Of a stretch of 34,432 nt of DNA, positions 2,353 to 32,826 are shown one piece after another (position 1 is the first letter of the stretch; each line of letters begins with the position of its first letter). Made by a program: the position numbers and the translations under genes. The notes beneath the pieces are model-generated. The model saw nothing but the letters and a program-made list of their open reading frames with translations, had not been told where the DNA came from and searched no databases. The stretch is from Myxococcales bacterium (GTDB lineage: Bacteria > Myxococcota_A > UBA9042): positions 1 to 34,432 of the forward strand of contig PBTG01000027.1 of the NCBI GenBank assembly GCA_002726535.1, written 5' to 3'.

Positions 2353-3762
2353 ATGTTGCAGCGACTGCAAAAACTCGGCGCAGGACTCACCCGCTGGACT
2401 ATTCGCTGGGTTCCAGATGCCTGGATCGTCGCCATTTTATTGACTCTCTTGGTGTGGATTTTGGCGGTGTGGCTCGGTGGTGCAGCCTGGGGGGTCGGCG
2501 AACAGCCCTTGCCTGTATGCGGCGCTACGAAAAGCTGCGGTGCTTTCGATGCTTGGTCGGGAGGAATTTGGAGACTCCTGAAGCTCTCGGCTCAATTCGC
2601 TCTAGCTTTGGTCGCGGCGCAAGCGTGCGCGACCTCAAGACCTCTATATGGCTTAATGAATCGCCTCGCCTCTCTGCCCGACGCCAGTCGCCCTCGCCAG
2701 GCGATCGTCTTGATGGCGCTCTTTTCAGCCCTAACCGCCTACCTGAACTGGGCCGTCAATTTGGTGATGTGCGCAGCCTTTGTTCCGATTGTGGCGGCGC
2801 GCAATCCACGAACGGATTGGCGTTTGTTAGTGGCCACAGCCTACCTAGGTATCGGTGTCGTATGGCACGGTGGACTCTCAGGCTCTGCTCCCCTGGTGGC
2901 CGCTACTGCCGATAGCTTTCTCATCAAGCAGGGAATTTTGGCGCAACCTTTGTCCATTTCCGAGACCTTATTGGCTCCTTTCAATCTCATCTATTTGGTG
3001 ATCATTACGGCTGTTGCGACCACGACGATGGCGCTACTGCACCCTGAGGCCGCAGACACCAAAGCGCTACCAATCGAGCAGGCCGAGGCATTGGTCAGCC
3101 CGCCAGGGCCTCGCCCCTCGCCAAGCACTCCAGCGGAGCGTCTCAATATGTCACGGTTGATGAGCATGGCGGTAGGCTGTCTTGTCCTCGCCCATTTGGT
3201 GACTCGCTTCATCCGCGAGGGCAGCGGTGGTTGGGATATCAACGGCTACAACGCAGCCTTCGTTGGATTGGCATTGGTGCTCCACGACTCTCCTCAATCC
3301 TTTCTTCGAGGCTGCGAGCAAGGCGCCAAAAACGCTTGGGGAATCATCGTTCAATTCCCACTCTATGCCGGAATCTTTGGATTGATGACTCTGACCCCTT
3401 TAGCGAGCCAACTCAGCGATGGCTTGGCCTCTTTCGGAAGCGCCCAAAGCTATCCAGCAGTGGTTTATGCGCTCAGTGCGATGGTCAACTATCTGGTGCC
3501 CTCCGGGGGCTCACAATTTGTGATTGAAGCCCCCTACATCCTCAGCGCCGGTGCTAGCCACGGTCTTGAAGCCGGAGCGACTGTGTTGGCTTTTGCTTAT
3601 GGCGATATGAGCACCAATCTCATCCAACCCTTTTGGGCGATTCCTTTGCTGAGCGTTACCGGTGTGTCATTTGGCGAGATCATGGGCTACTGCTTACTGC
3701 TCTTCGCTGCGGTAACCACGGTCACTCTCGGAGCCGTATGGTGTATGCCGCTCTTTTTGTAA
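2353..3762 (+). CDS. atoE: Short-chain fatty acid transporter, AtoE family
   Basis: 469 aa polytopic membrane protein; N-term WIVAILLTLLVWILA and C-term NYLVPSGGSQFVIEAPYIL typical of the AtoE/SCFA transporter family; starts 2 nt after the previous stop. Confidence 0.8.
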   Translation: MLQRLQKLGAGLTRWTIRWVPDAWIVAILLTLLVWILAVWLGGAAWGVGEQPLPVCGATKSCGAFDAWSGGIWRLLKLSAQFALALVAAQACATSRPLYGLMNRLASLPDASRPRQAIVLMALFSALTAYLNWAVNLVMCAAFVPIVAARNPRTDWRLLVATAYLGIGVVWHGGLSGSAPLVAATADSFLIKQGILAQPLSISETLLAPFNLIYLVIITAVATTTMALLHPEAADTKALPIEQAEALVSPPGPRPSPSTPAERLNMSRLMSMAVGCLVLAHLVTRFIREGSGGWDINGYNAAFVGLALVLHDSPQSFLRGCEQGAKNAWGIIVQFPLYAGIFGLMTLTPLASQLSDGLASFGSAQSYPAVVYALSAMVNYLVPSGGSQFVIEAPYILSAGASHGLEAGATVLAFAYGDMSTNLIQPFWAIPLLSVTGVSFGEIMGYCLLLFAAVTTVTLGAVWCMPLFL

Positions 3763-6700
3763 ATCGACACGCGCACACTTGGCTGGCGACGCTCTGCCTC
3801 ATGATGTTTTGGGGTTGCTCGACGAGCAGTGAGCCTGCGAAGCAAAGTTCGACTAACCAGCCATCGTTACGCTCTGATGTCGGGCTCGATGGCGCCCTGA
3901 GTATCGAGGCAGACCGTAGCGGCTTGGTAGATATCGAAGAGGTTGTAGACATCGCAACCGACACCACGATAACGAGCATCGATCTCGACATCATTCAATC
4001 TGACGGCGCTCCAGTCGACGTCGACAATCCGTTGGAAGACAGCACTGGAGAGACACACAGCGACGATGTGGTGGATGCAACGATTCAATTGGACGCTGTC
4101 GGAGATACATCGCTGCCTTCATCAGATGGTGGCTCGATGGTCGATGCAAGTATCGATAGCGGCAGTATCGACACCGCAGTCAATGACACGGGACCTGTCG
4201 ACACAAAAGTATGCCCATTCGGTCTGACCCCTTCGCTTATCAACTGCGGGTTTCAAGGGGTTTGCGCCGGCACCGTGAAGGTCAAGTGTGTAGCCGATCA
4301 ACCCACTTGTGATTACACAAAGGTGCCCAACTACGAGGTCGTCGAACTCACCTGTGACGGTCTAGACAATGACTGCAACGGAGCGACAGACAACAACCTC
4401 GCTCGCCCGATCGCTGTGAGTTGGCCCAATGTTGGGGTCTGTAAGAAGGCCTTGAAGGTCTGCGATGCAAGCAACGGCTGGAAAGAACCAAAGGGAGTTG
4501 AGATTGCTGGCTATCAGAGCGTCGAGACCCAATGTGACGGACTGGACAACGATTGTGATGGCGTGACGGATATCGACATTACAGGCAAGCCGCCGATGAG
4601 TTCCGCCCTCGGGGTCTGCAGTTCGCTGAGCAAGGTGTGTTTGTGGGGCATGTGGTTAAACCCAAACCCCCAACAAGCCCCGAATTATCAAGCCGTCGAG
4701 ACCCTTTGTGACGGGCTGGACAACGACTGTGATGGACTGACCGATGAGAGTCTTTCGCCGCCTAAACTGCCCTCCGGCGGGTTCAAGGTCCTTCAATCCG
4801 GTGTCTGCACTGGCGCTAAAGCGAGTTGTGTCAAAGGTGTGTGGGTCGCACCAGATTATGCCAAATACGTCAGTTCAATTGGACTGAGCGGGCTATACGA
4901 GCCCATTGAGCAGACCTGCGATGGGCTAGACAACGACTGCGATGGGCAAACAGACGAAGGATTAACCGGGCCGCCAGCGTCGATTCAATTTGGCGTCTGT
5001 GCCGGGCTAAGGAAAGTGTGCAAAGGCATCAATGGGTGGATGGATCCTCCGCTGCAGCAAGTCGCAAAGGTCTCGCTGGGACCAGAGATCTCTTGCGATG
5101 GACAGGACAACGATTGTGACGGCAAGACAGATGAGGAGGCCATATGTCCGCTCTGGCAGCTCGGAGGCCGAAATCAAGCGGGTGCAGCCGTACGAGGCGA
5201 CACTGTGGTCATCGCCGCGGGCTCGTCTATGCAGATATTCAAAGCCGCAAAGTTGGTCAGACAAGACTTTCGTCACTCACAACCAGTCGTAGCTTTGGCG
5301 CTATCATCTGACGGAAAACTACTCGCCTCTTGCAGCACCAACGAAGTCTTACGAGTTCAGTCGGTCAACGATGGCGTCATGGTCGACAAAGTCGATGCCC
5401 CCGGAAAAACCTGGCGCTCTGTCAGTTGGGCCCCGACCAACAAAGCGGTCGCCGTGGGAGACTCCGTCGGATGGGTTCGAGTCGTTCCCATCGGGTCAGG
5501 TCCGGGCGCTTTCGCGAAAAAACTCTTCAGTGGTGTGGTCAGACCCATTCGATGGGTTCAGTCAGGATCATTGACAGGACTTCGCGTGGTCGCCGCCGGT
5601 GGCAACGGGCAGGTCAAAGCCATTCATCCCTACACAGGGGTGACGTGGACCTACGAGCCAAAGCCTCTTGCCAAGGGCGTTGTCACGGACATCGCCATCG
5701 ACAAGCGATATGCGGCTGTCTCTTGGAACCAAGGTGGTGTGGCGGTCTTTGACACCAAAGATGGCGCGACTTTGGGTGCAACCTTCGCCCTGACAGTCGC
5801 CGCTCAAGCATTGAGTTTCGACGAAATGGGGCGCTTGTGGGTGATCGACAAGCAAGGCGACGTACGTCGTTATGACCCTCAAGGAGATCCGCCCAGCAGT
5901 TGGAAACTCAGTTGGTCCTTTGTTGGTACAAGCGCGCCTGGTCCAGTCGTGAGTCTCGATTGGTTGCCACCGAAGATTTTGTTGGCCAGCGGGTCACAGG
6001 CTACGGGCACGCTCTCCGACAAGGGAGCTTGGAGCTTGTTGTGGCAAGGCTCAAACGCGTTGACTGCATCCCTGAGCATCCAACCACCTCTTTGGGCACG
6101 AGCTCTTGGCGGTCCACAAGTGTATTTCGGTGACGCCTCAGGACCCCTCGGAAGCCTGTCTCCTCACGGTAGCGGCAAAGTCGCGGAGCTCGCACTTTCG
6201 CCAAACAATGCCTCTACATTGTTGAGTCGCAGTCAAAAAGGAGCTCTTGTGTCTTGGCCGTTGCCGGGGGCTAAAGGCCCGCTTTGGTCAGTCAACACCG
6301 CAGTGACTGGTTCACTCGCATGGAGCCCTGATGGGAGCGCTCACTGGCGCGCTCAAAAGAGCCAGCTCTGGCGGACATCGGTAGCGGACGGCAAAAGCAC
6401 CCTGTGGTACAGCCATCCAAAGGGAGCAAAGATCGATGCAATCTCTGTCTCTGCTCAACATGATCGTCTCGCCTTTGCATGCCAGGACTCCACCGAACAA
6501 TTGGTGATGATGGACCTAAAGAAGAGTTCCATTTTGTGGAGTCGGGATAAACTCGTTGCACCCCGACACGCACTCGCATGGCGACCCGATGGCAAGGAAA
6601 TATTGGCATCGGGAGGCAGTGCGAAGCTCGCCCTAATCGACACGCAGCAAGGCAAGACAATCGCCTTGTTACCCGGACACTTTGGATACGTCAGTGCTTT

Positions 6701-6932
6701 GGCCTGGATGAGCGAAGGCAAACGCTTTGTGAGCGCTTCCGATGATGGACTCGTCCGCTTATGGCGCCGAACCAGCAAAGGAGCGATAGGAGAGATGACC
6801 TCGGTGAGGCATTGCAACTGGCCCTGTCTCGGGAACGGCGGTGTTGTAGGAGTCGGTCAGATCGGAGCCAACCGGTGGGTATCTCTCGGTAGCGATGGAG
6901 GACAAATTCTTTGGAGTCTTCCGCCTCTGTAA
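3738..6932 (+). CDS. Lipoprotein with Asp-rich linker, five MopE-type CDGxDNDCDG repeats and C-terminal WD40-like beta-propeller
   Basis: Likely start at ATG 3738 (MVYAALFVNRHAHTWLATLCLMMFWGCSTSS, lipobox-like) inside the longer ORF 3633-6932, overlapping atoE by 25 nt. Five CDG(L/Q)DNDC(D/N)G repeats; WD-type repeats ending GHFGYVSALAWMSEGKRFVSASDDGLVRLWRR. Confidence 0.85.
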   Translation: MVYAALFVNRHAHTWLATLCLMMFWGCSTSSEPAKQSSTNQPSLRSDVGLDGALSIEADRSGLVDIEEVVDIATDTTITSIDLDIIQSDGAPVDVDNPLEDSTGETHSDDVVDATIQLDAVGDTSLPSSDGGSMVDASIDSGSIDTAVNDTGPVDTKVCPFGLTPSLINCGFQGVCAGTVKVKCVADQPTCDYTKVPNYEVVELTCDGLDNDCNGATDNNLARPIAVSWPNVGVCKKALKVCDASNGWKEPKGVEIAGYQSVETQCDGLDNDCDGVTDIDITGKPPMSSALGVCSSLSKVCLWGMWLNPNPQQAPNYQAVETLCDGLDNDCDGLTDESLSPPKLPSGGFKVLQSGVCTGAKASCVKGVWVAPDYAKYVSSIGLSGLYEPIEQTCDGLDNDCDGQTDEGLTGPPASIQFGVCAGLRKVCKGINGWMDPPLQQVAKVSLGPEISCDGQDNDCDGKTDEEAICPLWQLGGRNQAGAAVRGDTVVIAAGSSMQIFKAAKLVRQDFRHSQPVVALALSSDGKLLASCSTNEVLRVQSVNDGVMVDKVDAPGKTWRSVSWAPTNKAVAVGDSVGWVRVVPIGSGPGAFAKKLFSGVVRPIRWVQSGSLTGLRVVAAGGNGQVKAIHPYTGVTWTYEPKPLAKGVVTDIAIDKRYAAVSWNQGGVAVFDTKDGATLGATFALTVAAQALSFDEMGRLWVIDKQGDVRRYDPQGDPPSSWKLSWSFVGTSAPGPVVSLDWLPPKILLASGSQATGTLSDKGAWSLLWQGSNALTASLSIQPPLWARALGGPQVYFGDASGPLGSLSPHGSGKVAELALSPNNASTLLSRSQKGALVSWPLPGAKGPLWSVNTAVTGSLAWSPDGSAHWRAQKSQLWRTSVADGKSTLWYSHPKGAKIDAISVSAQHDRLAFACQDSTEQLVMMDLKKSSILWSRDKLVAPRHALAWRPDGKEILASGGSAKLALIDTQQGKTIALLPGHFGYVSALAWMSEGKRFVSASDDGLVRLWRRTSKGAIGEMTSVRHCNWPCLGNGGVVGVGQIGANRWVSLGSDGGQILWSLPPL
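4353..5140 (+). repeat. Five in-frame MopE-type repeat units (C-D-G-x-D-N-D-C-D/N-G)
   Basis: Units begin at about 4353, 4533, 4707, 4917 and 5094, spaced about 174-210 nt; each encodes CDG(L/Q)DNDC(D/N)GxTD. Confidence 0.85.
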
Positions 6933-6995: not shown

Positions 6996-8138
6996 ATGAA
7001 CACAGCCCTGACCGACAACCAAAGATTGCCCCTTGAGTTGGTGTACGAACGACATCGTCCGCTCGTCCAAGTGGATCGAGATGTCTCCATTCGGCTGAGG
7101 GTCGCCAAGGGACAGCTTCCTTCAAGCCTTGGAGATCTGGTCCCGACGTTGACCTATCTCATCAGCGATCCTGATATCGAGGTTCGCCGTGAGGCAATCA
7201 AGACACTATCTGATGCCCCCGAAACCGAACTCTCACAGGTTCTGAGCGGCCCGCAGAGTTCCAGACTTCTTGAGATCTTAGCCCAAAAGCTCACTGCTTC
7301 TGCAGCCCTCGTCGCTATCGCCCTCAATAGTAAAACGGTCGTGTCGACTTTGGTCGATCTCGCCGGGCGCGGAGATGCGCAGGTCTGCGACGTCATCGGC
7401 CGGAACGCACAGCGCGCCTTGGACAACCCGAGCATCATTGAAGCGCTCTTCTTTAACCCACTCGCTCCACAGGGATCCGTGCAGAACCTGATGGAATTGG
7501 CGGTACGTGAAGGGCTCCCTCTCGATCATATGCCGGGTTTTGTAGAGATTCGAGAGGACCTGCTCGGCCAAGTCGCTAGCGGTCAGAGCGCGGCTCCGCT
7601 GGCTTTGACGGACATCGATTTTCTCAACGTCGTGGAGTTGGCCACCAACGCCAATGATGGCCAAGTCACTGGCGGCAAAGCCTTCGAGGAGCAAGAGGAG
7701 GTCAAGCGTAGCCTCCAGGCGATGATTATGAATATGTCCGTGGCCGAGAAAATCAGGCTGGCTTTGATCGGTGATGCGAACGCTCGTAAGCTATTGATTC
7801 GTGACCCGAAAAAGATGGTTTCGCTCGCCGTACTAAAATCTCCACGACTAACAGATGGTGAAATTCGGCTCTTCGCTGCCAACAAAAACGTCGCCGACGA
7901 GGTCATCTCCAGCATCTCACGAAACCGTACTTGGACACGGGACTACATGGTACGAAAAGCCCTGGTGATGAATCCTAAGACCAAACTCACCGCAGCCATG
8001 GGGTTCATGCGTACGTTGATTGCCAAAGACATCAAGTCGGTCAGCAAAAGTCGGGAAGTCTCCACCGTTGTTGCTCGCGCAGCAAAGACGCTTTTGGAGA
8101 AGATTGAAATGGGTAAAAAGAAAAAGAAGAAGAAGTAA
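6996..8138 (+). CDS. HEAT-like repeat protein with poly-lysine C-terminus; function unknown
   Basis: 380 aa, mostly helical with HEAT-like segments (LISDPDIEVRREAIKTLSDAP); ends EMGKKKKKKK*. Confidence 0.75.
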   Translation: MNTALTDNQRLPLELVYERHRPLVQVDRDVSIRLRVAKGQLPSSLGDLVPTLTYLISDPDIEVRREAIKTLSDAPETELSQVLSGPQSSRLLEILAQKLTASAALVAIALNSKTVVSTLVDLAGRGDAQVCDVIGRNAQRALDNPSIIEALFFNPLAPQGSVQNLMELAVREGLPLDHMPGFVEIREDLLGQVASGQSAAPLALTDIDFLNVVELATNANDGQVTGGKAFEEQEEVKRSLQAMIMNMSVAEKIRLALIGDANARKLLIRDPKKMVSLAVLKSPRLTDGEIRLFAANKNVADEVISSISRNRTWTRDYMVRKALVMNPKTKLTAAMGFMRTLIAKDIKSVSKSREVSTVVARAAKTLLEKIEMGKKKKKKK

Positions 8139-8148
8139 GCCTTGTTGC

Positions 8149-9786
8149 TCAGGGCTCACCGAAGGTCCCAGCCCGCACAGCCTCTTCGACCACATCAGCG
8201 AGAGTGGGTAGATGCCGACAGCGGCGTCTCTGAAAATCTTCTCCGTCCGCACAGCGACGACGTAGTTGAGTCACCCACCAGTATCCACTGCCACCTCGTG
8301 CAATGTAGTCATTGGTTACGATCCCATAGCGCCCTTCGGGATCAATCTTTTTGCCCGCCACTTCGAGTCTCTGCACTCGTTGACCACGCTGAGCAATGCC
8401 GACGACTTGTCCCTTGCTCTTGCGGTAGCGAACTCGCGGGCGCTCGCCATTGCAGCGCATATCGATTCCAGCCAAAATCGCACGGCTACCCAAATGGCCT
8501 CGATGGCCTTTGGTACATGCGTGCTCAAGCATCTCTTTGAGCTCAGCGCCGCTGACATCCAAATAAACTGGGCGATTCCGAAAGGGATGAATCGAGCGAA
8601 TCTCCAAGTCTGTAACTGGCCCCGCAGGATAGATACTGTTGGTCCGTAGGCCGCCCATGTTCAACACCGCGCCGGCGACCTTGTCGGAAAGTCCAGACTG
8701 GGTTCGCATCCACTTCATCGCAGCTTGGGCGACCAAACGACCGTAGCGACGACGTTCACGCCCTTTTAAGTTCCAGGCTTTGGTGCGATGACCAACGATC
8801 TGCTCGACGGCGTAGTCCGCTCTAAATCGGGAAACGATGGTTTTCATTCGCTCATCGGGACTCATGTGTTCGTCGATTGGACGAACACGCCAACTAGACG
8901 CGGCGCGAATAATGCCGCCGCCTGGACGTCCTTTGATGTCGAGATATCCCAAGTGACCGAAACGTTCGCCGGACTGGACCACCACACTCTGACCGGCGAT
9001 CTTCCACTTTCGGAGCAGGGTGTGACTGTGACCGCCGATGATCAAATCAATCCCGGAGACTGCTCGAGCCAAACGCAAATCGGCGCGCAAGCCAAGATGA
9101 GTCAACGCAACGATGACATCGACTCGCTGAGCACGAAGTGCGGCCACTGCACGACGAGCGGGAGCCAAGACTGGCTCTTGCGGGTCTGAGAAGCGAGTGT
9201 CTCCGAAGTCAGAAATATTTCGCGTCGTCGGGGTCAACAACCCGAAAAAACCCAGCTTTAAGCCGCCGCATCGACGTGTCCACAGGGTCTTGTAGAGTCT
9301 CTCTTTGGGATTATGCAGTGTCGGACTGTGTGGATCTAAGTTACTGGTGACGATTTGAAAGGTCTTCAAGCCGCTGAGCGCATAACGAAGCACAGCGGGT
9401 CCAGCATCGAATTCATGATTTCCCAGGACGCCGACATCATATCCAGCTTGCTCATACAAACGCCAAGCCCGACGTGCCGCTTGCCGTCGGTCTCGATCTT
9501 TACGTGCCATGTAGCGACCCTGCAAAACATCGCCCGCAGAGACCAGCAACACGCCCTGAGGTCGCTGTCGGAGCTGCCGTCGCTTCTCAGCAGCGATCCG
9601 ATCCAAGGTGCCTTGATAATGAAATCGAAGGGGTGTGCCAACACGTGGACCATCAAGATGGCTCTCGCTGTCATTGGTGGTCAGCAAAAGACAACGATGA
9701 TGTAAATCGTCACGATTGAGATTTCGCTGATGAACTCCACAGCCAGTGAACAACACAAACGCTAGGAGCAAGCTAGCTTGCCTCAA
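8149..9786 (-). CDS. 5'-nucleotidase / UshA-like metallophosphatase lipoprotein
   Basis: Signal peptide with lipobox-like LFTGC; TTNDSESHLDG, SAGDVLQG, LGNHEFDAG, THLG and GGHSH motifs; C-terminal 5'-nucleotidase-like domain (NMGGLR...YIARGGSGY). Confidence 0.88.
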   Translation of the reverse strand: MRQASLLLAFVLFTGCGVHQRNLNRDDLHHRCLLLTTNDSESHLDGPRVGTPLRFHYQGTLDRIAAEKRRQLRQRPQGVLLVSAGDVLQGRYMARKDRDRRQAARRAWRLYEQAGYDVGVLGNHEFDAGPAVLRYALSGLKTFQIVTSNLDPHSPTLHNPKERLYKTLWTRRCGGLKLGFFGLLTPTTRNISDFGDTRFSDPQEPVLAPARRAVAALRAQRVDVIVALTHLGLRADLRLARAVSGIDLIIGGHSHTLLRKWKIAGQSVVVQSGERFGHLGYLDIKGRPGGGIIRAASSWRVRPIDEHMSPDERMKTIVSRFRADYAVEQIVGHRTKAWNLKGRERRRYGRLVAQAAMKWMRTQSGLSDKVAGAVLNMGGLRTNSIYPAGPVTDLEIRSIHPFRNRPVYLDVSGAELKEMLEHACTKGHRGHLGSRAILAGIDMRCNGERPRVRYRKSKGQVVGIAQRGQRVQRLEVAGKKIDPEGRYGIVTNDYIARGGSGYWWVTQLRRRCADGEDFQRRRCRHLPTLADVVEEAVRAGTFGEP

Positions 9787-9795
9787 GGGTCGCTC

Positions 9796-10506
9796 CTATT
9801 TGCCGAGTCGAGCTCGACCGGCCACACCGAGGCCCGCTGAAGTTCGTTTTTCGAGCAAGCGAGTGACATCTGCGTCAGGCAGTACTTTTAGTGCGCCCAA
9901 TTGCATCGATTGAAGCTGAATTTTAGCCAGATGCTCTACCAACTCCATACGTAAAAACGCCTGCTCCAAATCATCACCCCAGGACAAAGCGCCATGATTG
10001 CCTAGGGTCACCACATCGAATCGGCCGGCTGCCTCGGTCACCTCGGCGAGATAATCTGCGCTATTGGGGAAACGATAAGGCAGAAGCGGCACCCTGGCCC
10101 CCAAAGACACGATTGGCTCAGCCATCATCTTGGGCTCAACCTCGTGCCCCTGGATGGCCAATGCAGTCGAGCAGGGAGGGTGCGCATGAACCACGGCGCG
10201 CACATCTGCTCTGGTATTGTAGACCGCCATATGCATCTTAAATTCCGAAAATGGTCGCCGCCCACCCTGTAAAACACGTCCGTTTCTATCGACGACGATC
10301 AGGTCTTTTTCATCGATGACACGCTTGCTCAGAGCGGTCGGTGTAATCAAAAATCGTCCTGCTTCCAAACGTACGGACACGTTTCCGTCGTGATTGGCTA
10401 CCCATCCGGCGCTGTGCAACTCATGGGTGATCTCGAGTAAGGCTCGTTTGAGTACCGGCAAGGGCACATCTCGACCATGGAGTTGATGGATCGCTTTGGC
10501 GCTCAC
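9796..10506 (-). CDS. Class II aldolase/adducin family protein (fuculose/rhamnulose-phosphate aldolase-like)
   Basis: GWVANHDGNVSVRL, VVHAHPPCSTALA and VTLGNHGALSWG motifs; GTG start overlaps the stop of the upstream BMC-P gene (GTGA). Confidence 0.9.
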   Translation of the reverse strand: MSAKAIHQLHGRDVPLPVLKRALLEITHELHSAGWVANHDGNVSVRLEAGRFLITPTALSKRVIDEKDLIVVDRNGRVLQGGRRPFSEFKMHMAVYNTRADVRAVVHAHPPCSTALAIQGHEVEPKMMAEPIVSLGARVPLLPYRFPNSADYLAEVTEAAGRFDVVTLGNHGALSWGDDLEQAFLRMELVEHLAKIQLQSMQLGALKVLPDADVTRLLEKRTSAGLGVAGRARLGK

Positions 10507-10787
10507 TTGCGCGCCTCCACGTCTCGAGTCACGGCATCAACCACGCCAACGATCAAACAACGAAGGGGAGATTGAGATCGCCCGAGGACCTGGCGAATTC
10601 CACTGCCCTCTCTCAAGACGATGACGGTATCGCCAGGGCCTGCTTGAACGTTATCGACTGCGAGGAATGTAGCGCCTACGTCTGATCCTTTCTCGTCGAC
10701 TGGTTGCATGACGAATACCGCTCGAGCTTGGAGTTCTTCATGCTTGATGGTGGAGACCACGGGCTCAACGACACGGGCAAGGATCAT
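10503..10787 (-). CDS. EutN/CcmL family bacterial microcompartment vertex protein (BMC-P)
   Basis: Start at ATG 10787 (MILARVVEPVVSTIKHEELQARAVFVMQPVD...AVDNVQAGPGDTVIVLREGSGIRQVLG...IVGVVDAV) preceded by GGGAGGA; the ORF track extends to 10826. ATGA overlap with the upstream gene. Confidence 0.88.
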   Translation of the reverse strand: MILARVVEPVVSTIKHEELQARAVFVMQPVDEKGSDVGATFLAVDNVQAGPGDTVIVLREGSGIRQVLGRSQSPLRCLIVGVVDAVTRDVEARK

Positions 10788-11110
10788 GTGGTCCTCCCTC
10801 GTTTTCCCTGAGCTTTGCTGGGCCACTTTGCGTCTATTTGGGCGTTTCTACCGCCCACAGAATCGACGATCGCCAAAATCGCATGATCGACGGGGACGAA
10901 CGATTGCTCGAGGGAAACCGCAGCCTCACGAGAGGAGGTCAGATGAACCAAATCCCCCGGACCCGCTTGGGTTGTATCGACGGCGACTACCGGATTGTCG
11001 CGATCAACCCCGGCTTCAGTCACAGGCTGAACAACGACCAGCCTTAGGCCTTGAAGACCTTCAACCTTCCTCGTGGCAACGACGTTGCCGATGACTCGCC
11101 CCAAGAACAT
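10784..11110 (-). CDS. EutN/CcmL family bacterial microcompartment vertex protein (BMC-P), second copy
   Basis: Start at ATG 11110 (MFLGRVIGNVVATRKVEGLQGLRLVVVQPV...AVDTTQAGPGDLVHLTSSREAAVSL...ILAIVDSV), same fold signature as the neighbour; the ORF track extends to 11146. Confidence 0.87.
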   Translation of the reverse strand: MFLGRVIGNVVATRKVEGLQGLRLVVVQPVTEAGVDRDNPVVAVDTTQAGPGDLVHLTSSREAAVSLEQSFVPVDHAILAIVDSVGGRNAQIDAKWPSKAQGKRGRTT

Positions 11111-24343: not shown

Positions 24344-25360
24344 GTGCAAAATCTCAACGTTGCCGTTATCGGTGCTGGGTATTGGGGCCCCAATTTGGTG
24401 CGCAACTTTAGCGCTTGCCAGAGCACCTCGGTCGCAGCCATCTGCGATCTAGATCTTGCTAAAGCTCAAAAACTCGCCGATCGCTTCGGCAGTCCCAAAG
24501 TGACCGCTGATGTCCAAGAACTCTTGGCCGACTCCGCGATTGAGGCTGTGGCCATCGCAACGCCCGTACACACCCACTATCCTTTGGCCAAAAGAGCTCT
24601 ACAAGCGGGCAAACACGTGCTGGTCGAAAAGCCCCTGACGATGTCCAGCCAACAGGGCCAAGAGTTGGTTGATTTGGCCGCCTCGAAAAATCTTCGGCTG
24701 ATGTGTGACCACACCTTTTGTTACACCGGCCCGGTCAGAAAAATTCGCGAGTTGGTCCACAGCGGCGAGTTGGGAGAGGTGCTCTACTTTGACAGCGTTC
24801 GAGTCAACCTGGGGCTCTTTCAAAGTGACGTCAACGTGTTGTGGGACCTCGCGCCTCATGATCTATCGATCCTCGACTTCATCCTTCCCGATCACATCAA
24901 ACCGGTAGCGGTCTCTGCAACTGGCCTGGACGCCATGAACACCGGCTTCGAGTCCATCGCCTACCTGACGGTGCACTACGACGACTCTTTGATTGGTCAT
25001 GTACACGCGAACTGGCTCAGCCCGGTCAAGGTGCGCATGACTCTGGTCGGCGGCACACAAAAGATGGTCGTTTGGGATGACACCTCCGCTTCTGAGCGGA
25101 TCAAAGTCTACGACAAGGGCGTCGACGTCGATGAGTCCAAACGAGAAGATCTCCTGGTCAGGTATCGCCACGGTGGAGCGCACATCCCAGTGCTTGAAAA
25201 CACTGAGGCGCTGCTGTTGATGGTCTCGGAATTCGCCGACGCCATCGCGCAAGGCCGTAAACCATTGACGAGCGGAGAGGACGGCCTGCTCGTTGTGAAG
25301 ATCCTCGAGGCTGCCAACAAGTCTATCGCCCAGGGCGGCGCGAAGGTTGATCTCGCGTAG
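24344..25360 (+). CDS. Gfo/Idh/MocA family oxidoreductase (WlbA/WbpB-like nucleotide-sugar 3-dehydrogenase candidate)
   Basis: VAVIGAGYWGPNLVRNF, KHVLVEKPLTMSSQQGQEL; GTG start preceded by GGAGGA. Confidence 0.88.
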   Translation: MQNLNVAVIGAGYWGPNLVRNFSACQSTSVAAICDLDLAKAQKLADRFGSPKVTADVQELLADSAIEAVAIATPVHTHYPLAKRALQAGKHVLVEKPLTMSSQQGQELVDLAASKNLRLMCDHTFCYTGPVRKIRELVHSGELGEVLYFDSVRVNLGLFQSDVNVLWDLAPHDLSILDFILPDHIKPVAVSATGLDAMNTGFESIAYLTVHYDDSLIGHVHANWLSPVKVRMTLVGGTQKMVVWDDTSASERIKVYDKGVDVDESKREDLLVRYRHGGAHIPVLENTEALLLMVSEFADAIAQGRKPLTSGEDGLLVVKILEAANKSIAQGGAKVDLA

Positions 25361-25402
25361 ATTGCCATCCACCAAGACCGCTTCGAAGCGGCGGAGGAGT
25401 CC

Positions 25403-25879
25403 ATGGAGCCAAAGTTCTCGTTAATCGCTCCGAGCGTCGAGCTCGGCGAAGACGTCAAAATCTACTCTTTCGTCAATCTGTATGGCTGCAAAATCGGCGA
25501 TCAGACCAAAATTGGCACCTTCGTGGAGATCCAAGCTGGGGCCTCCGTTGGCAAAAGGTGCAAAATCTCGAGTCATACTTTTATCTGTGAGGGTGTTCAC
25601 ATCGGCGACGGCTGCTTTGTGGGTCATGGGGTCATGTTCATCAACGACAGATCTCCCAAAGCTGTCAATGCTACAGGCGAGCTTGCAGGCCCTGATGACT
25701 GGACCATGGAGACCACACAAATCGGAAACAATGTCTCGATCGGCACCGGGGCGATCATTATGTGCGGTGTACAGGTCGGTGATGGAGCGATGATCGGCGC
25801 CGGCGCTGTGGTGACCAAAGACGTGGCAGCAGGGGCGATTGTGGCCGGTGTGCCTGCTCGGGTGCTGCGCCGCGACTGA
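25403..25879 (+). CDS. Left-handed beta-helix N-acetyltransferase (WlbB/WbpD-like)
   Basis: Hexapeptide repeats (IGDQTKIGTFVEIQAGASVG, IGTGAIIMCGVQVGDGAMIGAGAVVTKDV, PARVLRRD). Confidence 0.88.
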   Translation: MEPKFSLIAPSVELGEDVKIYSFVNLYGCKIGDQTKIGTFVEIQAGASVGKRCKISSHTFICEGVHIGDGCFVGHGVMFINDRSPKAVNATGELAGPDDWTMETTQIGNNVSIGTGAIIMCGVQVGDGAMIGAGAVVTKDVAAGAIVAGVPARVLRRD

Positions 25880-25884
25880 TCCGC

Positions 25885-25941
25885 TGGACGCGACGGGGGC
25901 ATCGCGTCTAGGCTCATTTTCGCGTCCGCGACGCTCGCGGA
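25885..25941. other. Two adjacent perfect inverted repeats (hairpins) in the intergenic gap
   Basis: GACGCGA(25887-25893)/TCGCGTC(25902-25908), loop CGGGGGCA; TCCGCGA(25925-25931)/TCGCGGA(25935-25941), loop CGC; a TTTT lies between them. Confidence 0.6.
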
Positions 25942-25975
25942 GCGAACATCGGTTTATGTCCTGCTGGAGACTGAG

Positions 25976-27082
25976 ATGAACGTGCCTTTCCTTGACCTAC
26001 GGGCCCAACATGCCCCGCTCAAAGAAGAGATCCTCGCCGCTTGGTCGAACATCCTCGACACCTGCGGCTTCGTCAACGGCCCTCACGTCCAAGGCTTTGA
26101 GAGCGCATTCGCCAAAGCTTGCGATGTCGGTCACGCCGTAACCTTGTCAACGGGAACAGACGCGTTGATTTTGCCGCTCAAGGCGCTGGGCGTCGGACCA
26201 GGTGACGAGGTCATCTTGCCGGCCAATACCTTTTTCGCGACCGCAGAGGGCGTCAGCCAAGTGGGTGGAACGCCGGTTTTCGTGGACTGCCTGCGAGATA
26301 CATGGAACATCGACCCAGCGGCCATCTCCGCGGCAGTGACGCCGCGTACCGTCGGCGTTATCGGTGTGCACTTGTACGGTCAACCCTTTGACTATGACGC
26401 CGTCAAAGCCGTCGCCGACAAGCATGACCTGTGGGTGATGGAAGACAGCGCTCAGGGCCATTTGGCCACCTACAAAGGTCGCAAGTGTGGTTCTTTGGGC
26501 GTCGGCGCGGGCTTTTCCTTTTATCCTGGCAAGAACCTCGGTGCCCCAGGCGAAGGCGGGGCCTTCACGACTGCAGACGAAGCCTTAGCGGCGAAGGTCC
26601 GCATGCTCCGCGATCATGGCTCGTCGAAAAAATATCACCACGAGCTCGTCGGCTACAACGCGCGGCTTCCCGCAGTGATGGCCGCCGCTCTGGAGATCAA
26701 ACTCGCGCATCTACCCCGGTGGACGCAGGCACGTCGACACAACGCAAAACGCTACCTGAGTAATCTGGAGAGCATCGCCAACGTATCGGCTCCGGTCGAG
26801 GCTCAATGGGCTGAGAGCGCCTGGCACCTCTTTGTGGTGCACGTCGACGACCAGTCGGCAGTTTTGACCAAGCTCAAAGAGGCTGGCGTCGGAGTCGGGA
26901 TGCATTATCCAGTCCCAGTTCATCTGCAGCCCGCCTACGAAAGCCTAGGCTACAAGCTCGGTGACTTTCCGAACGCGGAGTACAACGGCGCCCACTGCGT
27001 GAGCTTGCCGATGTTCGCTGAGCTAAACGACTCTCAAATCGACTATGTCTGTGAGCAGCTCGACCGCGCAGTCAACGGCTAG
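25976..27082 (+). CDS. DegT/DnrJ/EryC1/StrS aminotransferase (WlbC/WbpE-like)
   Basis: VPFLDLRAQH, LSTGTDALILPLKALGVGPGDEVILPANTFFATAEG, EDSAQGH, FSFYPGKNLGAPGEGG (catalytic Lys). Confidence 0.92.
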   Translation: MNVPFLDLRAQHAPLKEEILAAWSNILDTCGFVNGPHVQGFESAFAKACDVGHAVTLSTGTDALILPLKALGVGPGDEVILPANTFFATAEGVSQVGGTPVFVDCLRDTWNIDPAAISAAVTPRTVGVIGVHLYGQPFDYDAVKAVADKHDLWVMEDSAQGHLATYKGRKCGSLGVGAGFSFYPGKNLGAPGEGGAFTTADEALAAKVRMLRDHGSSKKYHHELVGYNARLPAVMAAALEIKLAHLPRWTQARRHNAKRYLSNLESIANVSAPVEAQWAESAWHLFVVHVDDQSAVLTKLKEAGVGVGMHYPVPVHLQPAYESLGYKLGDFPNAEYNGAHCVSLPMFAELNDSQIDYVCEQLDRAVNG

Positions 27083-27138
27083 ATACGCTTTTAGACGTGC
27101 GCTCGTTGGGCGCAAGCGACTCATCAAGGAGCCCAAAG

Positions 27139-28167
27139 ATGAAAAAGGACGCTGTGTACGCTCAGCCCATACGAGACCAAGTGGCCTTGGTCACGGGCGG
27201 TGCTGGTCTCGTCGGCTCTCACATCTGTGATCTACTCCTCGCTGAGGGCATCTCAGAACTTCGGGTCCTCGACGACTTCAGCCGCGGCACGATGGCCAAC
27301 TTGCGAGACGCAATGGCGGTCGCTGGCGATCGCCTCCAGATCATCCGAGGTGATATCCGCAACCAAGCGACGGTCGACCAAGCCGTCGCCGGCTGTGATT
27401 TGGTGTTTCATCAAGCCGCGATTCGTATCACCCGCTGCGCACAAGAGCCGCGCGAAGCCTTTGATGTGCTGGCGACCGGTACGCTCAATATCCTCGACGC
27501 GTGCGTCAAACATGACGTGAAAAAGCTCGTCGCCGCCTCGAGCGCGTCGGTCTATGGTCCCGCGGACGTCTTTCCAACCGACGAGCAGCACCACCTCTTT
27601 AACAATCGGACCATGTACGGCGCCTGCAAAGTCGCCAACGAGCAGATGATGCGCGCGTACAATGAGATGTATGGGCTGCCCTTTGTTGCGCTGCGCTACT
27701 TCAACGTCTATGGGCCAAGGATGGACGTCTACGGCGTCTACACCGAAGTGCTCGTCCGTTGGCTCGATCGACTCGATGCAGGTGATGCGCCGCTGATCTA
27801 CGGCACCGGCGATCAGACCATGGACTTTGTCTTCATCGGAGACATCGCGAGAGCCAACTTGCTGGCCGCAAAGGCAGACGTCGCCGACGCCTATTACAAT
27901 GTCGCTCGCGGCGAAGAGACCAGCCTCAAAGAGCTTTGTGCCTCTTTGTGTCGCGCTCATGGCTCAGCCGATGCTTCACCCGATTTTATCCCCTTGCCTT
28001 CGGAGCGACGCGGCGTCGAGGTGGTCCGAAGGTTGGCGGTCACAGACAATGCCTCTCGAGACCTTAACTTTCAGGCCGAAGTCGGTCTCGACGATGGATT
28101 GATGCGATTTGTTCGCTGGCGAGCAGCAGAGTTGGCGCGAGTCAAAGCAGAGCAGGAGGGATCATGA
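27139..28167 (+). CDS. NAD-dependent epimerase/dehydratase (nucleotide sugar epimerase)
   Basis: VTGGAGLVGSHI, SSASVYG, YGACK, LRYFNVYGPRMD; start at ATG 27139 (MKKDAVYAQP) preferred over 27097. Confidence 0.88.
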   Translation: MKKDAVYAQPIRDQVALVTGGAGLVGSHICDLLLAEGISELRVLDDFSRGTMANLRDAMAVAGDRLQIIRGDIRNQATVDQAVAGCDLVFHQAAIRITRCAQEPREAFDVLATGTLNILDACVKHDVKKLVAASSASVYGPADVFPTDEQHHLFNNRTMYGACKVANEQMMRAYNEMYGLPFVALRYFNVYGPRMDVYGVYTEVLVRWLDRLDAGDAPLIYGTGDQTMDFVFIGDIARANLLAAKADVADAYYNVARGEETSLKELCASLCRAHGSADASPDFIPLPSERRGVEVVRRLAVTDNASRDLNFQAEVGLDDGLMRFVRWRAAELARVKAEQEGS

Positions 28168-29294
28168 TCCCAATCATCAAACCCTGGCTGGGCGAGCAAG
28201 AAGCCGAAGCAGCCCGCGATGCGATCTTGAGCGGCTGGGTCGCCCAAGGTCCACGAGTCGGACAATTCGAGCGCGCAGTTTGCGACAGAGTGGGCGCCAC
28301 CGAAGGGCTCGCTGTATCCTCTTGTACCACGGGACTGCACCTCGCTCTGATCGGCGCTGAGGTCGGGCCGGGAGACGACGTAGTGGTGCCCTCATTGTCT
28401 TTCATCGCGACGGCCAATTCGGTGTCCTACTGCGGAGCGAACTCGGTATTTGCTGACGTCTGTCCAGTGACTCAAAATGTAACGGCGCAAACGGTCTCAG
28501 ATGCAATCACACCCAAAACCAAAGCGGTCTTGTTGGTCCATCAAGTCGGGATGCCAGCGGACATTGACGCAATTCGCGCGGTCTGCGACGCCGCAGGAGC
28601 CGTGTTGATTGAAGACGCCGCGTGCGCCATCGGCTCGACTTACAAAGGAGCCGAGATCGGCGGACACAGCCCCTTTGTCGTCTACAGCTTCCATCCACGC
28701 AAGGTCATCACCACCGGTGAGGGCGGCATGGTGATGGTGCAGGACAAAGCGATCGCAGATCGTCTGCGTATCCTTCGTCAGCACGCCATGAGCATCAGCG
28801 ATGTGGCCCGCCACAGCAGCGAAGAGTTCGTGTTCGAGAGCTACCCGGAGCTCGGGTACAACTACAGGATGACCGACATCCAAGCCGCTATCGGTATGGT
28901 CCAACTGGGCAAGCTCTCCGCGGTCGTCTCCCGGCGTCGACAACTCGCTCAGAACTACCACCGAGCGCTCGAGCACTATGAGATTTTGCAGTTGCCTGTC
29001 GACCCGAGCTACGGCACGACCAACTACCAGAGCTACTGCATCAAACTGCGAGACGGCGGACGCAAACTGCGAGATCGGATCTTGCAGGGCTTCAAAGACC
29101 GTCAAATCGGTGGCAAGAGAGGCATTATGGCCGCTCACCTCGAGGGCGCGTTCTCGACCCATCGCCAAGCGGGGCGAGGTTCATTGCCTGAGAGCGAAAG
29201 ATGGACAGACGAGAGCTTTGTTCTTCCCATGTACCATCACATGACGCAGAGCGAACAGGCTCAGGTTGTCGAAGAACTTAGAGTGCTCCTGTAG
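28164..29294 (+). CDS. DegT/DnrJ/EryC1/StrS aminotransferase, second copy
   Basis: IIKPWLGEQEAEAARDAILSGWVAQGPRVGQFE, SSCTTGLHLALIGAEVGPGDDVVVPSLSFIATANS, EDAACAIGS, YSFHPRKVITTGEGG; ATGA overlap with the epimerase stop. Confidence 0.92.
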   Translation: MIPIIKPWLGEQEAEAARDAILSGWVAQGPRVGQFERAVCDRVGATEGLAVSSCTTGLHLALIGAEVGPGDDVVVPSLSFIATANSVSYCGANSVFADVCPVTQNVTAQTVSDAITPKTKAVLLVHQVGMPADIDAIRAVCDAAGAVLIEDAACAIGSTYKGAEIGGHSPFVVYSFHPRKVITTGEGGMVMVQDKAIADRLRILRQHAMSISDVARHSSEEFVFESYPELGYNYRMTDIQAAIGMVQLGKLSAVVSRRRQLAQNYHRALEHYEILQLPVDPSYGTTNYQSYCIKLRDGGRKLRDRILQGFKDRQIGGKRGIMAAHLEGAFSTHRQAGRGSLPESERWTDESFVLPMYHHMTQSEQAQVVEELRVLL

Positions 29295-29357
29295 CCTAAG
29301 TCGTCGACCCCGGAGCCATCATGATCGAGCGAGACGTCGCTCTGCAAGAGGTTACTC

Positions 29358-30467
29358 GTGAATATGCGCTATGCCGAGGCCATTGCTCGCTCTATCCAAA
29401 GACGAATCGAAGCATGCTCATTGGATCTCTCTGGGTTGGTGGTAGCCACAGAGTGCGCCAATGACGCGTATGCCACGACCGCCGCCGCCGCATTGGCTGC
29501 CGGCGCCAAAGAGGTCTGGGCCTACGGACGAGATAGCTCTTGGGCAACCTTGCAGCAGAGCGCAGCTGATGTTCAGGCTCTCGCTCTCGCCCTGGGAGCC
29601 AAAGTCGAGCGGCTCCATGTGGTTCAATCACGACAGGCGATCCCATGGCCAAACGTCGATTTGGTGACCAACTCTGGTCACTTGCGCCCGCTAGACGCCG
29701 AGATTCTCAGCGCCATCCCATCATCTGCCGTGATCGCATTGATGTTTGAGGCCTGGGAGTTGCGAAATGGAGACATCGATTTAGATATCGCTCGCTCGCG
29801 AGGCATCTCCATCTTTGGTGTGGATGAGCATCACCCTGCCTGCGGCTCTTTTGAATTCGTTGGAGCGCTTGCAGTCAGTGAAGTGATGCGACAAAGATGG
29901 TCTTTGGGCGACGCAAAAGTCGCAGTGATCAGTGACAATGCATTCATGGGGCCAGTGTTGCGAGCGATGACAGCCATGGGAGCACAAGCCATCGCGGTTG
30001 ATCCCAACCCCAACAGACGATCCAACTCTGAACTCCAATCTCACCTTCGTCTGTCATCTGACAAGATCCTCTCTGGTCAGGGACCCGCTTTCGACCTTGC
30101 TGTGGTTGCGACCACCCCCGCAGCTGTCGCCGAACAGAGCGGACAAGTCGCAATCGCCCCCAAAGCGCTCGCTGAACTTGTCGCTGCTTGTGGTGTTTAC
30201 GGTTGTATCCAACTCTGGGGAGACATCGATCGCGGCAGCGCCGAGGCGAAAGGTGTGAAATTTGGGCCCAATGACACTCCCAAACCAGGACATCAAGCCA
30301 TCGCGATGAATGCGGCAGGCTATGAAGCTACCGTACGACTACAGGTGGGAGGACTCGCTGCCGCCCTGCACGGTTTGCGACAACGACAAGGCGTCCCGAC
30401 ACCTGAGCATCTCATTGGGCTGACTCAATCGCTCAGTCTCACAGAGTCTTCTACTCAGGAGAGCTAA
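29358..30467 (+). CDS. Uncharacterised Rossmann-like protein in nucleotide-sugar operon
   Basis: 369 aa ORF in the operon direction with intact frame, GTG start; alternating beta/alpha pattern (GDAKVAVISDNAFMGPVLRAMTAMGAQAIAVDPNP) without a clean GxGxxG; no family confidently recognised. Confidence 0.75.
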   Translation: MNMRYAEAIARSIQRRIEACSLDLSGLVVATECANDAYATTAAAALAAGAKEVWAYGRDSSWATLQQSAADVQALALALGAKVERLHVVQSRQAIPWPNVDLVTNSGHLRPLDAEILSAIPSSAVIALMFEAWELRNGDIDLDIARSRGISIFGVDEHHPACGSFEFVGALAVSEVMRQRWSLGDAKVAVISDNAFMGPVLRAMTAMGAQAIAVDPNPNRRSNSELQSHLRLSSDKILSGQGPAFDLAVVATTPAAVAEQSGQVAIAPKALAELVAACGVYGCIQLWGDIDRGSAEAKGVKFGPNDTPKPGHQAIAMNAAGYEATVRLQVGGLAAALHGLRQRQGVPTPEHLIGLTQSLSLTESSTQES

Positions 30468-30468
30468 C

Positions 30469-31485
30469 ATGGCCGAACTCTACCCCGCCCCTCTTGGCCT
30501 TCAAGGGGTCTCATTGTCCGGTCTTGCTAATGAGTACGGCTTCGAGCTCATGGGTCCAGATGGTCCCGTTAAGTTCTTTGGGCGAATCAAGATGGGCCGT
30601 GAGGGGATTGAGCACGTGCTGTCCTACGTCACTGCGCCTGAATATTTGGACGGTTTCGCACAGAGTCCACATGAATACGCACTGATCGAGCGTCGCTTCG
30701 TAACGGAGTCTCTGCCCTCCAATAAGTCGTGGCTGATCTGTGACGAAATGGCCGATGAGTGGTTGTTCAAAATGCATATTGATGCGGTCGCTCAGGGTCG
30801 CTTTCACCGAGTCAGCCCTTTTGTAGACCCAAGCGCAATCGTGCACCCATCTGCTGTGGTGATGGACAATGTTCATCTCGGTGCAAACACGCGAATCGAC
30901 GCGAACGTTGTGCTCTACCCAAATACTTTTGTTGGCGAGGGCTCGCACATTATGGCCAATAGTACGCTGGGGGGAGAAGGTTTTGAGACCAAATATGTCT
31001 TTGGTGAGCGCAAACTGATCCCACATACCGGTGGGGTGATCGTCGAGTCTGGAGTGACCATCGGCTCGTCGACCTGCATTGACTGCGGGTTATTTGGCAC
31101 TTTTACGCGCGTGCGAGCTGGCGCCCACATCGACAACCTCTGTCACATCGCCCACAACGCAGACATTGGTGATGATGCGGCCATTGTCGCTTGCGCTCTC
31201 GTGGCAGGCAGCGTCACCGTCGGTAAGGGTGCCTGGTGGGGACCCGGTGCTGTAAGCAATCATGAGGTCGTTGTGGGGGATTATGCATACATCGGCACCG
31301 GCGCAGTGCTTACGCGTGACATCCCCGCTCATGCTCTAGCGTTTGGAGCGCCTGCTAAAGTTAGAGGCTGGGCCTGCAGATGCCGCAATAAACTCAATGT
31401 GATTGATGGACGAGCAACCTGTAGCAAATGCGGCGCGCAACTGATCAGCAATGACCAAGAGCAGTTGGTGCTTGTCGACGAGTAA
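30469..31485 (+). CDS. LpxD-like left-handed beta-helix acyltransferase with C-terminal Cys4 zinc-ribbon-like tail
   Basis: Hexapeptide repeats (VHPSAVVMDNVHLGANTRIDANVVLYPNTFVGEGS, DNLCHIAHNADIGDDAAIVACALVAGSVTVG) and tail GWACRCRNKLNVIDGRATCSKCGAQL. Confidence 0.85.
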   Translation: MAELYPAPLGLQGVSLSGLANEYGFELMGPDGPVKFFGRIKMGREGIEHVLSYVTAPEYLDGFAQSPHEYALIERRFVTESLPSNKSWLICDEMADEWLFKMHIDAVAQGRFHRVSPFVDPSAIVHPSAVVMDNVHLGANTRIDANVVLYPNTFVGEGSHIMANSTLGGEGFETKYVFGERKLIPHTGGVIVESGVTIGSSTCIDCGLFGTFTRVRAGAHIDNLCHIAHNADIGDDAAIVACALVAGSVTVGKGAWWGPGAVSNHEVVVGDYAYIGTGAVLTRDIPAHALAFGAPAKVRGWACRCRNKLNVIDGRATCSKCGAQLISNDQEQLVLVDE

Positions 31486-31498
31486 AGACAGCGACTGA

Positions 31499-32470
31499 CT
31501 ACGACATCAACGAGCGGCCTTCACCCATAAAGCCAAGACGTTTGCTTTGCGCCAGTTTCGACGCCCTTTTGGCCACTCGCGACGCCAAGGTCTCCATCAA
31601 CATGGACAGGGTGTCCCAACCCGGGCGGGATGATACGACGACCCATGGGAGTTGACCCAACGATGCGTGCCGAAAACGAGCGCGTCTGCGCCCTAACATC
31701 AATCGTTGCTTGTCGGCCTTACCGAGCTCCGAGAGTTGCAGCAAAGCCTCATAGCCATCATCGATGAATTGAGCAACGGCCCGAGCCGCGGCATAGTTGA
31801 TGCTCATGTTGCCACCGTGAACACGGTAACTCAGCACATCGCGTTCAATCCGAGCAAAATCGCCATAAAATGTGAACCAATACCACTGCAGCCAATCTCC
31901 ACAGTGACGGTTTAGCAGTGGATAAGCAGCGACATGGTCATGCACACTCGTACGCACCAAAGCGCAAATCGCGGGCACAGTATTTTCAATGGCCAGTTCA
32001 TCGCGCAGGGTCTGCGATGGCAATACAGTAACCTGCCGTTCGCGACTATGTTGTCGTACCTGAAGAATATGGCCCTGCTCATCAACGGGTCGGTGATACC
32101 CATAGACCGTCACCAAGGACGGATTGTCAGCCATGAGGCGAGCGGCATCCGCGAGGAACTCCGGATCCACAAGATAATCATCCGCAGACATGAGCAAATA
32201 CGAATCGGTTGTGATCTCTGAGACTCGCGCACGGTAATGCTCAATATTGCCAAGATTTTCTGGATTCCGGATGACTTCAACGTCCTCGAAGCCAGCACAA
32301 GCGGCCTGCACATCTTGTAAGCTTTCATCCGGAGAACAGTCGTCGCTCACGACAATTCGAGCAGGGCGCAACGTCTGCGCAGCGATACTGCTGAGTACAT
32401 CGTTGAGGTAACGGCTGTAGTTGTAAGTGAAGATCACTACGGTGACGGTCGGTAAGGTCGCGTTCATCAC
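31499..32470 (-). CDS. Glycosyltransferase family 2
   Basis: PTVTVVIFTYNYSRYLNDVLSSIAAQTLRPARIVVSDDCSPDESL and LLMSADDYLVDPEFL (DxD-like). Confidence 0.92.
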   Translation of the reverse strand: MMNATLPTVTVVIFTYNYSRYLNDVLSSIAAQTLRPARIVVSDDCSPDESLQDVQAACAGFEDVEVIRNPENLGNIEHYRARVSEITTDSYLLMSADDYLVDPEFLADAARLMADNPSLVTVYGYHRPVDEQGHILQVRQHSRERQVTVLPSQTLRDELAIENTVPAICALVRTSVHDHVAAYPLLNRHCGDWLQWYWFTFYGDFARIERDVLSYRVHGGNMSINYAAARAVAQFIDDGYEALLQLSELGKADKQRLMLGRRRARFRHASLGQLPWVVVSSRPGWDTLSMLMETLASRVAKRASKLAQSKRLGFMGEGRSLMS

Positions 32471-32826
32471 ATCCCGCTCTTCATGAAGCCATCTCCTGCG
32501 ATGCGCAGCAGTCGTGAACCTCTCGATGATAACGATCTATGACTGTATCGTCACCAAGGACAACAAAAGAACGCCTCGCTCGACCCGCGAAATAGACGCT
32601 GTCAGTCTGTGATTAGACCAATCAAGGCATCTGTTTTCAGTCCCTAGCGCTCCAAAGTCCAATCAAAGCCTACGAGCGCTCCATAGATCTCGCTGCAGGT
32701 CAGATCTGATAGTGTGCAGCGCTGGACCATCATGGCAAACTCGCTCCGAACCGCCGCGCCACGCCGAGACTGCTTGAGACATTCACGGCGCTTGCCGGTT
32801 GGCGATAACCCTTTCGGGAGAGACGC

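What the first reader, a model, noticed from the sequence alone, without database searches (positions are those of the whole stretch)
9796..11110. Two microcompartment vertex genes coupled to a class II aldolase, with no hexameric shell gene in the window
Seen: two consecutive EutN/CcmL-type ORFs share an ATGA overlap, and the second overlaps the class II aldolase by GTGA, so the three are probably translationally coupled. Established: class II aldolase next to BMC-P genes is a hallmark of PVM-type (fucose/rhamnose) and related microcompartment loci. Unusual: no BMC-H or BMC-T shell gene, aldehyde dehydrogenase or PduL is seen anywhere in these 34 kb. This may be a satellite locus of a BMC elsewhere, a remnant, or a pentamer-only assembly with a different role.
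Basis: partly seen in the sequence, partly recalled or inferred. Interest (0 to 1): 0.72.

Follow-up and report, generated by a model that had tools for sequence, protein, structure and literature searches.

The report
Satellite genes of Haliangium-type bacterial organelle
The two genes encode corner proteins of a bacterial protein organelle and sit beside a sugar-phosphate-splitting enzyme; they are the separately placed "satellite" part of a known microcompartment type (HO, from Haliangium ochraceum), whose main gene cluster lies elsewhere in the genome and falls largely in an assembly gap here, so the find is ordinary.

Summary
Two EutN/CcmL (BMC-P) genes (10784-11110 and 10503-10787, minus strand) overlap by ATGA, and the second overlaps a class II aldolase gene (9796-10506) by GTGA. 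No BMC-H, BMC-T, aldehyde dehydrogenase or PduL gene lies in the window. But the window is one contig of a MAG that is 67.5% complete. The same genome carries a full BMC-T (C146, closest to H. ochraceum BMC-T3, PDB 5v76) and a BMC-T cut by the end of contig C91, followed by ribBA and a kinase gene. In all six relatives read, the main locus is BMC-T, BMC-H, BMC-P, aldehyde dehydrogenase, BMC-T, with ribBA next in five. So the main locus very probably exists and is lost at the assembly break. Sutter et al. [quoted passage not shown] "Satellite" is right; "pentamer-only" and "remnant" are not supported. Small additions: the genome encodes a deoxyribose-phosphate aldolase with an encapsulation-peptide-like N-terminus; a secreted 5'-nucleotidase gene follows the trio in this family; the class II aldolase here lacks the C-terminal peptide seen in Haliangium-like genomes.

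The parts
10784..11110 (-). BMC-P1, shell vertex protein (EutN/CcmL family), 108 aa
   Evidence: Pfam PF03319 3.2e-25; P1 clade separates with support 0.99 in a tree of 135 BMC-P domains
10503..10787 (-). BMC-P2, second shell vertex protein, 94 aa, ATGA overlap with BMC-P1
   Evidence: Pfam PF03319 5.8e-23; P2 clade separates with support 0.93
9796..10506 (-). Class II (FucA-like) aldolase, 236 aa, GTGA overlap with BMC-P2; intact metal ligands E88, H107, H109, H171
   Evidence: Pfam PF00596 5.9e-46; nearest solved structures are L-fuculose-phosphate aldolases; ligand alignment
8149..9786 (-). UshA-like 5'-nucleotidase, predicted lipoprotein (MRQASLLLAFVLFTGC), 9 bases downstream of the aldolase; family-specific neighbour, probably in the same transcript (inferred)
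   Evidence: Pfam 5_nucleotid_C 5.4e-21 and Metallophos 1.2e-06; follows the trio in 17 of 19 same-family genomes with enough flank, none seen outside the family

Best explanation
This is the satellite locus of a type I HO (Haliangium ochraceum-type) bacterial microcompartment in an uncultured myxobacterium-like organism. BMC-P1 and BMC-P2 are two of the three vertex paralogues (the 'BMC-P triplet'); the third sits in the main locus with BMC-H, two BMC-T genes and an acylating aldehyde dehydrogenase. The class II aldolase most likely splits a ketose-1-phosphate into DHAP and a small aldehyde, which the aldehyde dehydrogenase turns into acyl-CoA inside the shell. A deoxyribose-phosphate aldolase with an encapsulation-peptide-like N-terminus, encoded elsewhere in the same genome, would feed acetaldehyde to the same enzyme, fitting the published idea that HO compartments break down nucleic-acid sugars. 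Shown: domain identities, gene order, conservation, other shell genes in the genome. Inferred: assembly into one shell, substrates, cargo status of the aldolase.
For: Domains. Other shell genes in own genome: C146 BMC-T, 4e-77 to PDB 5v76, and a C91-edge BMC-T like 5dih. Main-locus synteny BMC-T, BMC-H, BMC-P, AldDH, BMC-T in all six relatives whose main locus was read; ribBA follows in five, and the kinase directly after it in G001, G002, G004 and further along in G008; C91 starts inside that last BMC-T and continues with ribBA and the kinase. Same-family relatives: 3 BMC-P in 20 of 21, and 2-9 BMC-domain matches each. The P1-P2-aldolase trio recurs across the class and in seven genomes with BMC-T3 70-79% identical to H. 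ochraceum's. P1, P2 and main-locus P form three separate clades. Published description of exactly this satellite (PMC8217296). EP-like N-terminus on own DeoC and EP-like C-termini on six of seven Haliangium-like aldolases.
Against: BMC-H, main BMC-P and the BMC aldehyde dehydrogenase were not seen in this genome itself: the MAG is 67.5% complete, and its AldDH hits are not the BMC enzyme (best 21% identity). The window's aldolase has no recognisable encapsulation peptide, so its cargo status is not shown. No genome identical to H. ochraceum was among those read.
Confidence: 0.94

Rival explanations
1. Remnant of a decayed BMC: the genome has lost its main locus and the pair persists without function.
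For: No BMC-H, main BMC-P or PduL was found in the assembly.
Against: The assembly is fragmentary; C91 breaks inside the main locus. All three same-genus genomes have the complete main locus. The trio is intact with overlaps and active-site ligands kept.
Confidence: 0.03
2. Pentamer-only assembly with a role unrelated to a shell, for example a scaffold for the aldolase.
For: Only pentamer genes are next to the aldolase, with likely translational coupling.
Against: BMC-T genes are in the same genome, and every same-family genome has BMC-domain matches besides the pair. The pair belongs to the known BMC-P triplet (PMC8217296).
Confidence: 0.01
3. Satellite of a PVM-type (fucose/rhamnose) compartment rather than an HO-type one.
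For: The aldolase is FucA-like and the nearest solved pentamer is PDB 4i7a, which from memory is a planctomycete PVM vertex protein. Planctomycete loci also carry three BMC-P genes with an aldolase.
Against: Shell trimers match H. ochraceum BMC-T3 and BMC-T1. Gene order and the split main/satellite layout match HO type I. The aldolase motif VANHDGN is shared with Haliangium-like genomes; the planctomycete loci read have (I)VGADGN or IAGADGN.
Confidence: 0.02

Closest known systems
Type I HO BMC satellite locus (Sutter et al. 2021, PMC8217296)
   Same: Two BMC-P genes plus an aldolase, away from the main locus; main locus (in relatives) with AldDH, BMC-H, BMC-P and BMC-T.
   Different: In this family the aldolase lacks the C-terminal encapsulation-peptide-like tail of Haliangium-like genomes, and a secreted 5'-nucleotidase gene follows it.
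PVM-type BMC locus (Planctomycetes/Verrucomicrobia)
   Same: BMC-P genes and a class II aldolase.
   Different: In the planctomycete loci read, three BMC-P genes and the aldolase are contiguous, and the aldolase motif differs.
ACI-type BMC (Acidobacteria, PMC8217296)
   Same: BMC-P triplet, class II aldolase, AldDH encoded away from the aldolase.
   Different: There the AldDH is on the satellite and the aldolase has a C-terminal EP; here the aldolase is on the satellite and has none.

Membership tests
BMC-P (EutN/CcmL) vertex protein | Match to PF03319 over the whole domain above cut-off | tested here: met
   88.9 and 81.6 bits, full profile 1-83, cut-off 25
HO-type BMC | BMC-P triplet | tested here: inconclusive
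   Two of three present in own genome; all three in every same-genus relative; main-locus P expected in the gap at C91
HO-type BMC | HO-like double-stacking BMC-T | tested here: met
   C146 209-aa BMC-T, 4.2e-77 to PDB 5v76, 56% identity
HO-type BMC | Main locus with BMC-H and AldDH | tested here: inconclusive
   Present in all six relatives whose main locus was read, three of them same-genus; in own genome only the flanking end is on C91
HO type I satellite | Two BMC-P plus aldolase, distal from the main locus | tested here: met
   description; in G001-G004, G006 and G008 main and satellite loci lie on different contigs
HO type I satellite | Orthology with the pair in Haliangium-like genomes | tested here: met
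   P1 and P2 clades include those genomes; same order
Encapsulated cargo aldolase | Terminal encapsulation peptide | tested here: not met
   Window aldolase ends SAGLGVAGRARLGK; no EP-like terminal segment in a profile test. EP-like tails do occur in Haliangium-like homologues and in G024
Class II zinc aldolase (FucA-like) | Metal ligands Glu, His-x-His, His | tested here: met
   E88, H107, H109, H171 align with PDB 4c24 L-fuculose-phosphate aldolase
PVM-type BMC | BMC-P triplet and aldolase in one contiguous main locus | tested here: not met
   Only two BMC-P here; the third is in a different locus in relatives
L-fuculose-phosphate aldolase (substrate) | Equivalog-level match | tested here: not met
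   Best NCBIfam scores about 107 bits against cut-offs of 250 or more; substrate unknown

The most novel reading that the evidence does not exclude
In this family the HO compartment is a two-aldolase organelle for scavenged nucleotides: a secreted 5'-nucleotidase co-transcribed with the vertex/aldolase trio releases nucleosides, an EP-tagged deoxyribose-phosphate aldolase and the class II aldolase both make aldehyde for one aldehyde dehydrogenase, and the class II aldolase, which has no peptide here, is loaded through its vertex partners instead.
Probability: 0.15. Interest if true: 0.5.

Novelty: new member of a known kind. Interest (0 to 1): 0.15.

Why it matters
The HO shell is the main structural model of bacterial microcompartments, yet its natural function is unknown. 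The conserved satellite trio, the linked 5'-nucleotidase and the EP-tagged DeoC give testable hints in favour of the published nucleic-acid-sugar hypothesis. As a finding in itself, the locus is an ordinary member of a described type.

Tried and rejected
A regex suggested that most same-family aldolases had lost the HAH metal-binding motif; the alignment showed HTH, HSH or HCH instead, ligands intact, so that lead was dropped. Hydrophobic-moment tests did not separate EP-like tails from the window aldolase's ends. A profile built from aldehyde-dehydrogenase EPs recognised the DeoC N-terminus of G001 well (3e-6 per segment) and that of the own genome weakly (3.5e-4), but the Haliangium-like aldolase tails poorly; the EP reading of those tails rests on their anatomy (variable linker, then a conserved terminal helix such as DLAAIVRDELLAALR). 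No genome identical to H. ochraceum was among those searched (best 79% BMC-T3 identity). Own AldDH hits were tested as the BMC enzyme and rejected. No structure was predicted: the family assignments did not need it.

Full report
What is there. Three minus-strand genes overlap end to start: BMC-P1 (10784-11110), BMC-P2 (10503-10787, ATGA overlap) and a class II aldolase (9796-10506, GTGA overlap). Pfam confirms the families far above cut-off. Nine bases further lies a UshA-like 5'-nucleotidase with a lipoprotein-type signal (8149-9786).

Why the absence is not unusual. The window is one whole contig (C202) of a MAG of 2.72 Mb in 202 contigs, 67.5% complete. The same genome has a 209-aa BMC-T on C146, E 4e-77 to PDB 5v76 (H. 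ochraceum BMC-T3; organism and name from memory), and the C-terminal half of a second BMC-T at the first base of C91, similar to PDB 5dih. On C91 that fragment is followed by ribBA and a protein kinase gene. In same-genus genomes G001, G002 and G003 the main BMC locus reads BMC-T, BMC-H, BMC-P, aldehyde dehydrogenase, BMC-T, ribBA, and in G001 and G002 the same kinase (G003's contig ends in ribBA). The main locus of this genome therefore very probably lies where C91 breaks.

Relatives. All 21 same-family relatives have BMC-P, 20 of them three copies. BMC-H-grade matches occur in 18 of 21; G005 and G018 have their main-locus BMC-P within 250 bases of a contig start, and G019 (81% complete) shows only the pair. 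The P1-P2-aldolase trio was found in families f1, f3, f4, f5, f6, f7 and f12 of the class; in the one f8 pair read (L120) no aldolase was recognised beside it. Of eight genomes most similar to H. ochraceum by BMC-T3 (69-79% identity), seven carry the same trio; the eighth, G367, shows only its main-locus P. In a tree of 135 BMC-P domains, P1, P2 and main-locus P form three groups (53 of 54, 53 of 53, and 28 of 28 plus one stray; supports 0.99, 0.93, 0.84), each of the window's genes in its own group.

Known description. Sutter et al. 2021 (PMC8217296; [quoted passage not shown] They call the function enigmatic and suggest catabolism of nucleic acid, because some HO genomes have a pfam01791 enzyme elsewhere with an EP-like N-terminal extension. 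The present locus is such a satellite.

Mechanism. The aldolase keeps the metal ligands (E88, H107, H109, H171), so it is probably active; its substrate is not resolved. The main-locus AldDH of G001 is of the PRK15398 subfamily, with an EP-like N-terminus (MDDVRIEAIVAEVVRRLG). The window's own genome encodes DeoC (TIGR00126, 7e-78) with the N-terminus SAKEREFEQLVSTITAMVREQLG before a Cys-rich linker, as the published suggestion would predict. Six of seven Haliangium-like aldolases end in a linker and a helix such as DLAAIVRDELLAALR, which suggests cargo; the window's aldolase and most of its class lack that tail, so how it is loaded, if it is, is open. Quantitative EP tests were weak.

5'-nucleotidase. 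It follows the aldolase in 17 of 19 same-family genomes with enough flank, own genome included (absent in G016 and G021; contig ends too near in G002, G013, G018), and in none read outside the family. This is consistent with nucleotide scavenging but is only an association.

Verdict. It is an ordinary member of a described locus type with a few details worth recording.

Noticed in passing
L205 (G000:C113) 7666-8586, minus strand: Deoxyribose-phosphate aldolase with EP-like N-terminus and a Cys-rich linker (CSTDEGDCGGCGPC); several relatives have a similar linker (for example CSAGKGQCTGCGWS in G001).
   Followed up: partly
L201, L202, L203 (G001, G002, G003) and L204 (G009): Acetate kinase fused to a PduL-type phosphotransacylase in one protein of about 600 aa (TIGR00016 2e-138 plus PRK15070 7e-79 in L201); L204 has a TAG inside the matched stretch. 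No PduL was found in the window's own genome.
   Followed up: partly
L089, L091, L093, L095, L097; own genome L005 324-1460: ribBA (riboflavin synthesis) lies directly after the last BMC-T of the main locus in five of six relatives read, and in the window's genome.
   Followed up: no
window 24344-34383: Polysaccharide biosynthesis cluster: MocA-type oxidoreductase, hexapeptide transferases, two DegT aminotransferases, epimerase, glycosyltransferase, flippase-like protein.
   Followed up: no
window 3633-6932: Large protein combining MopE metal-binding motifs with WD40-like repeats; it and the HEAT-repeat gene at 6996-8138 stay near the satellite in several relatives.
   Followed up: no
window 2353-3762: Short-chain fatty acid transporter (PF02667, 7.7e-93), possibly relevant to acetate or other acyl products.
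   Followed up: no
L009 (CAMDBH010000026.1): Record titled Klebsiella pneumoniae MAG matches the myxobacterium-like genome G004 (C26) in contig length (42892 bases) and gene layout; the title appears to be a mislabel.
   Followed up: no
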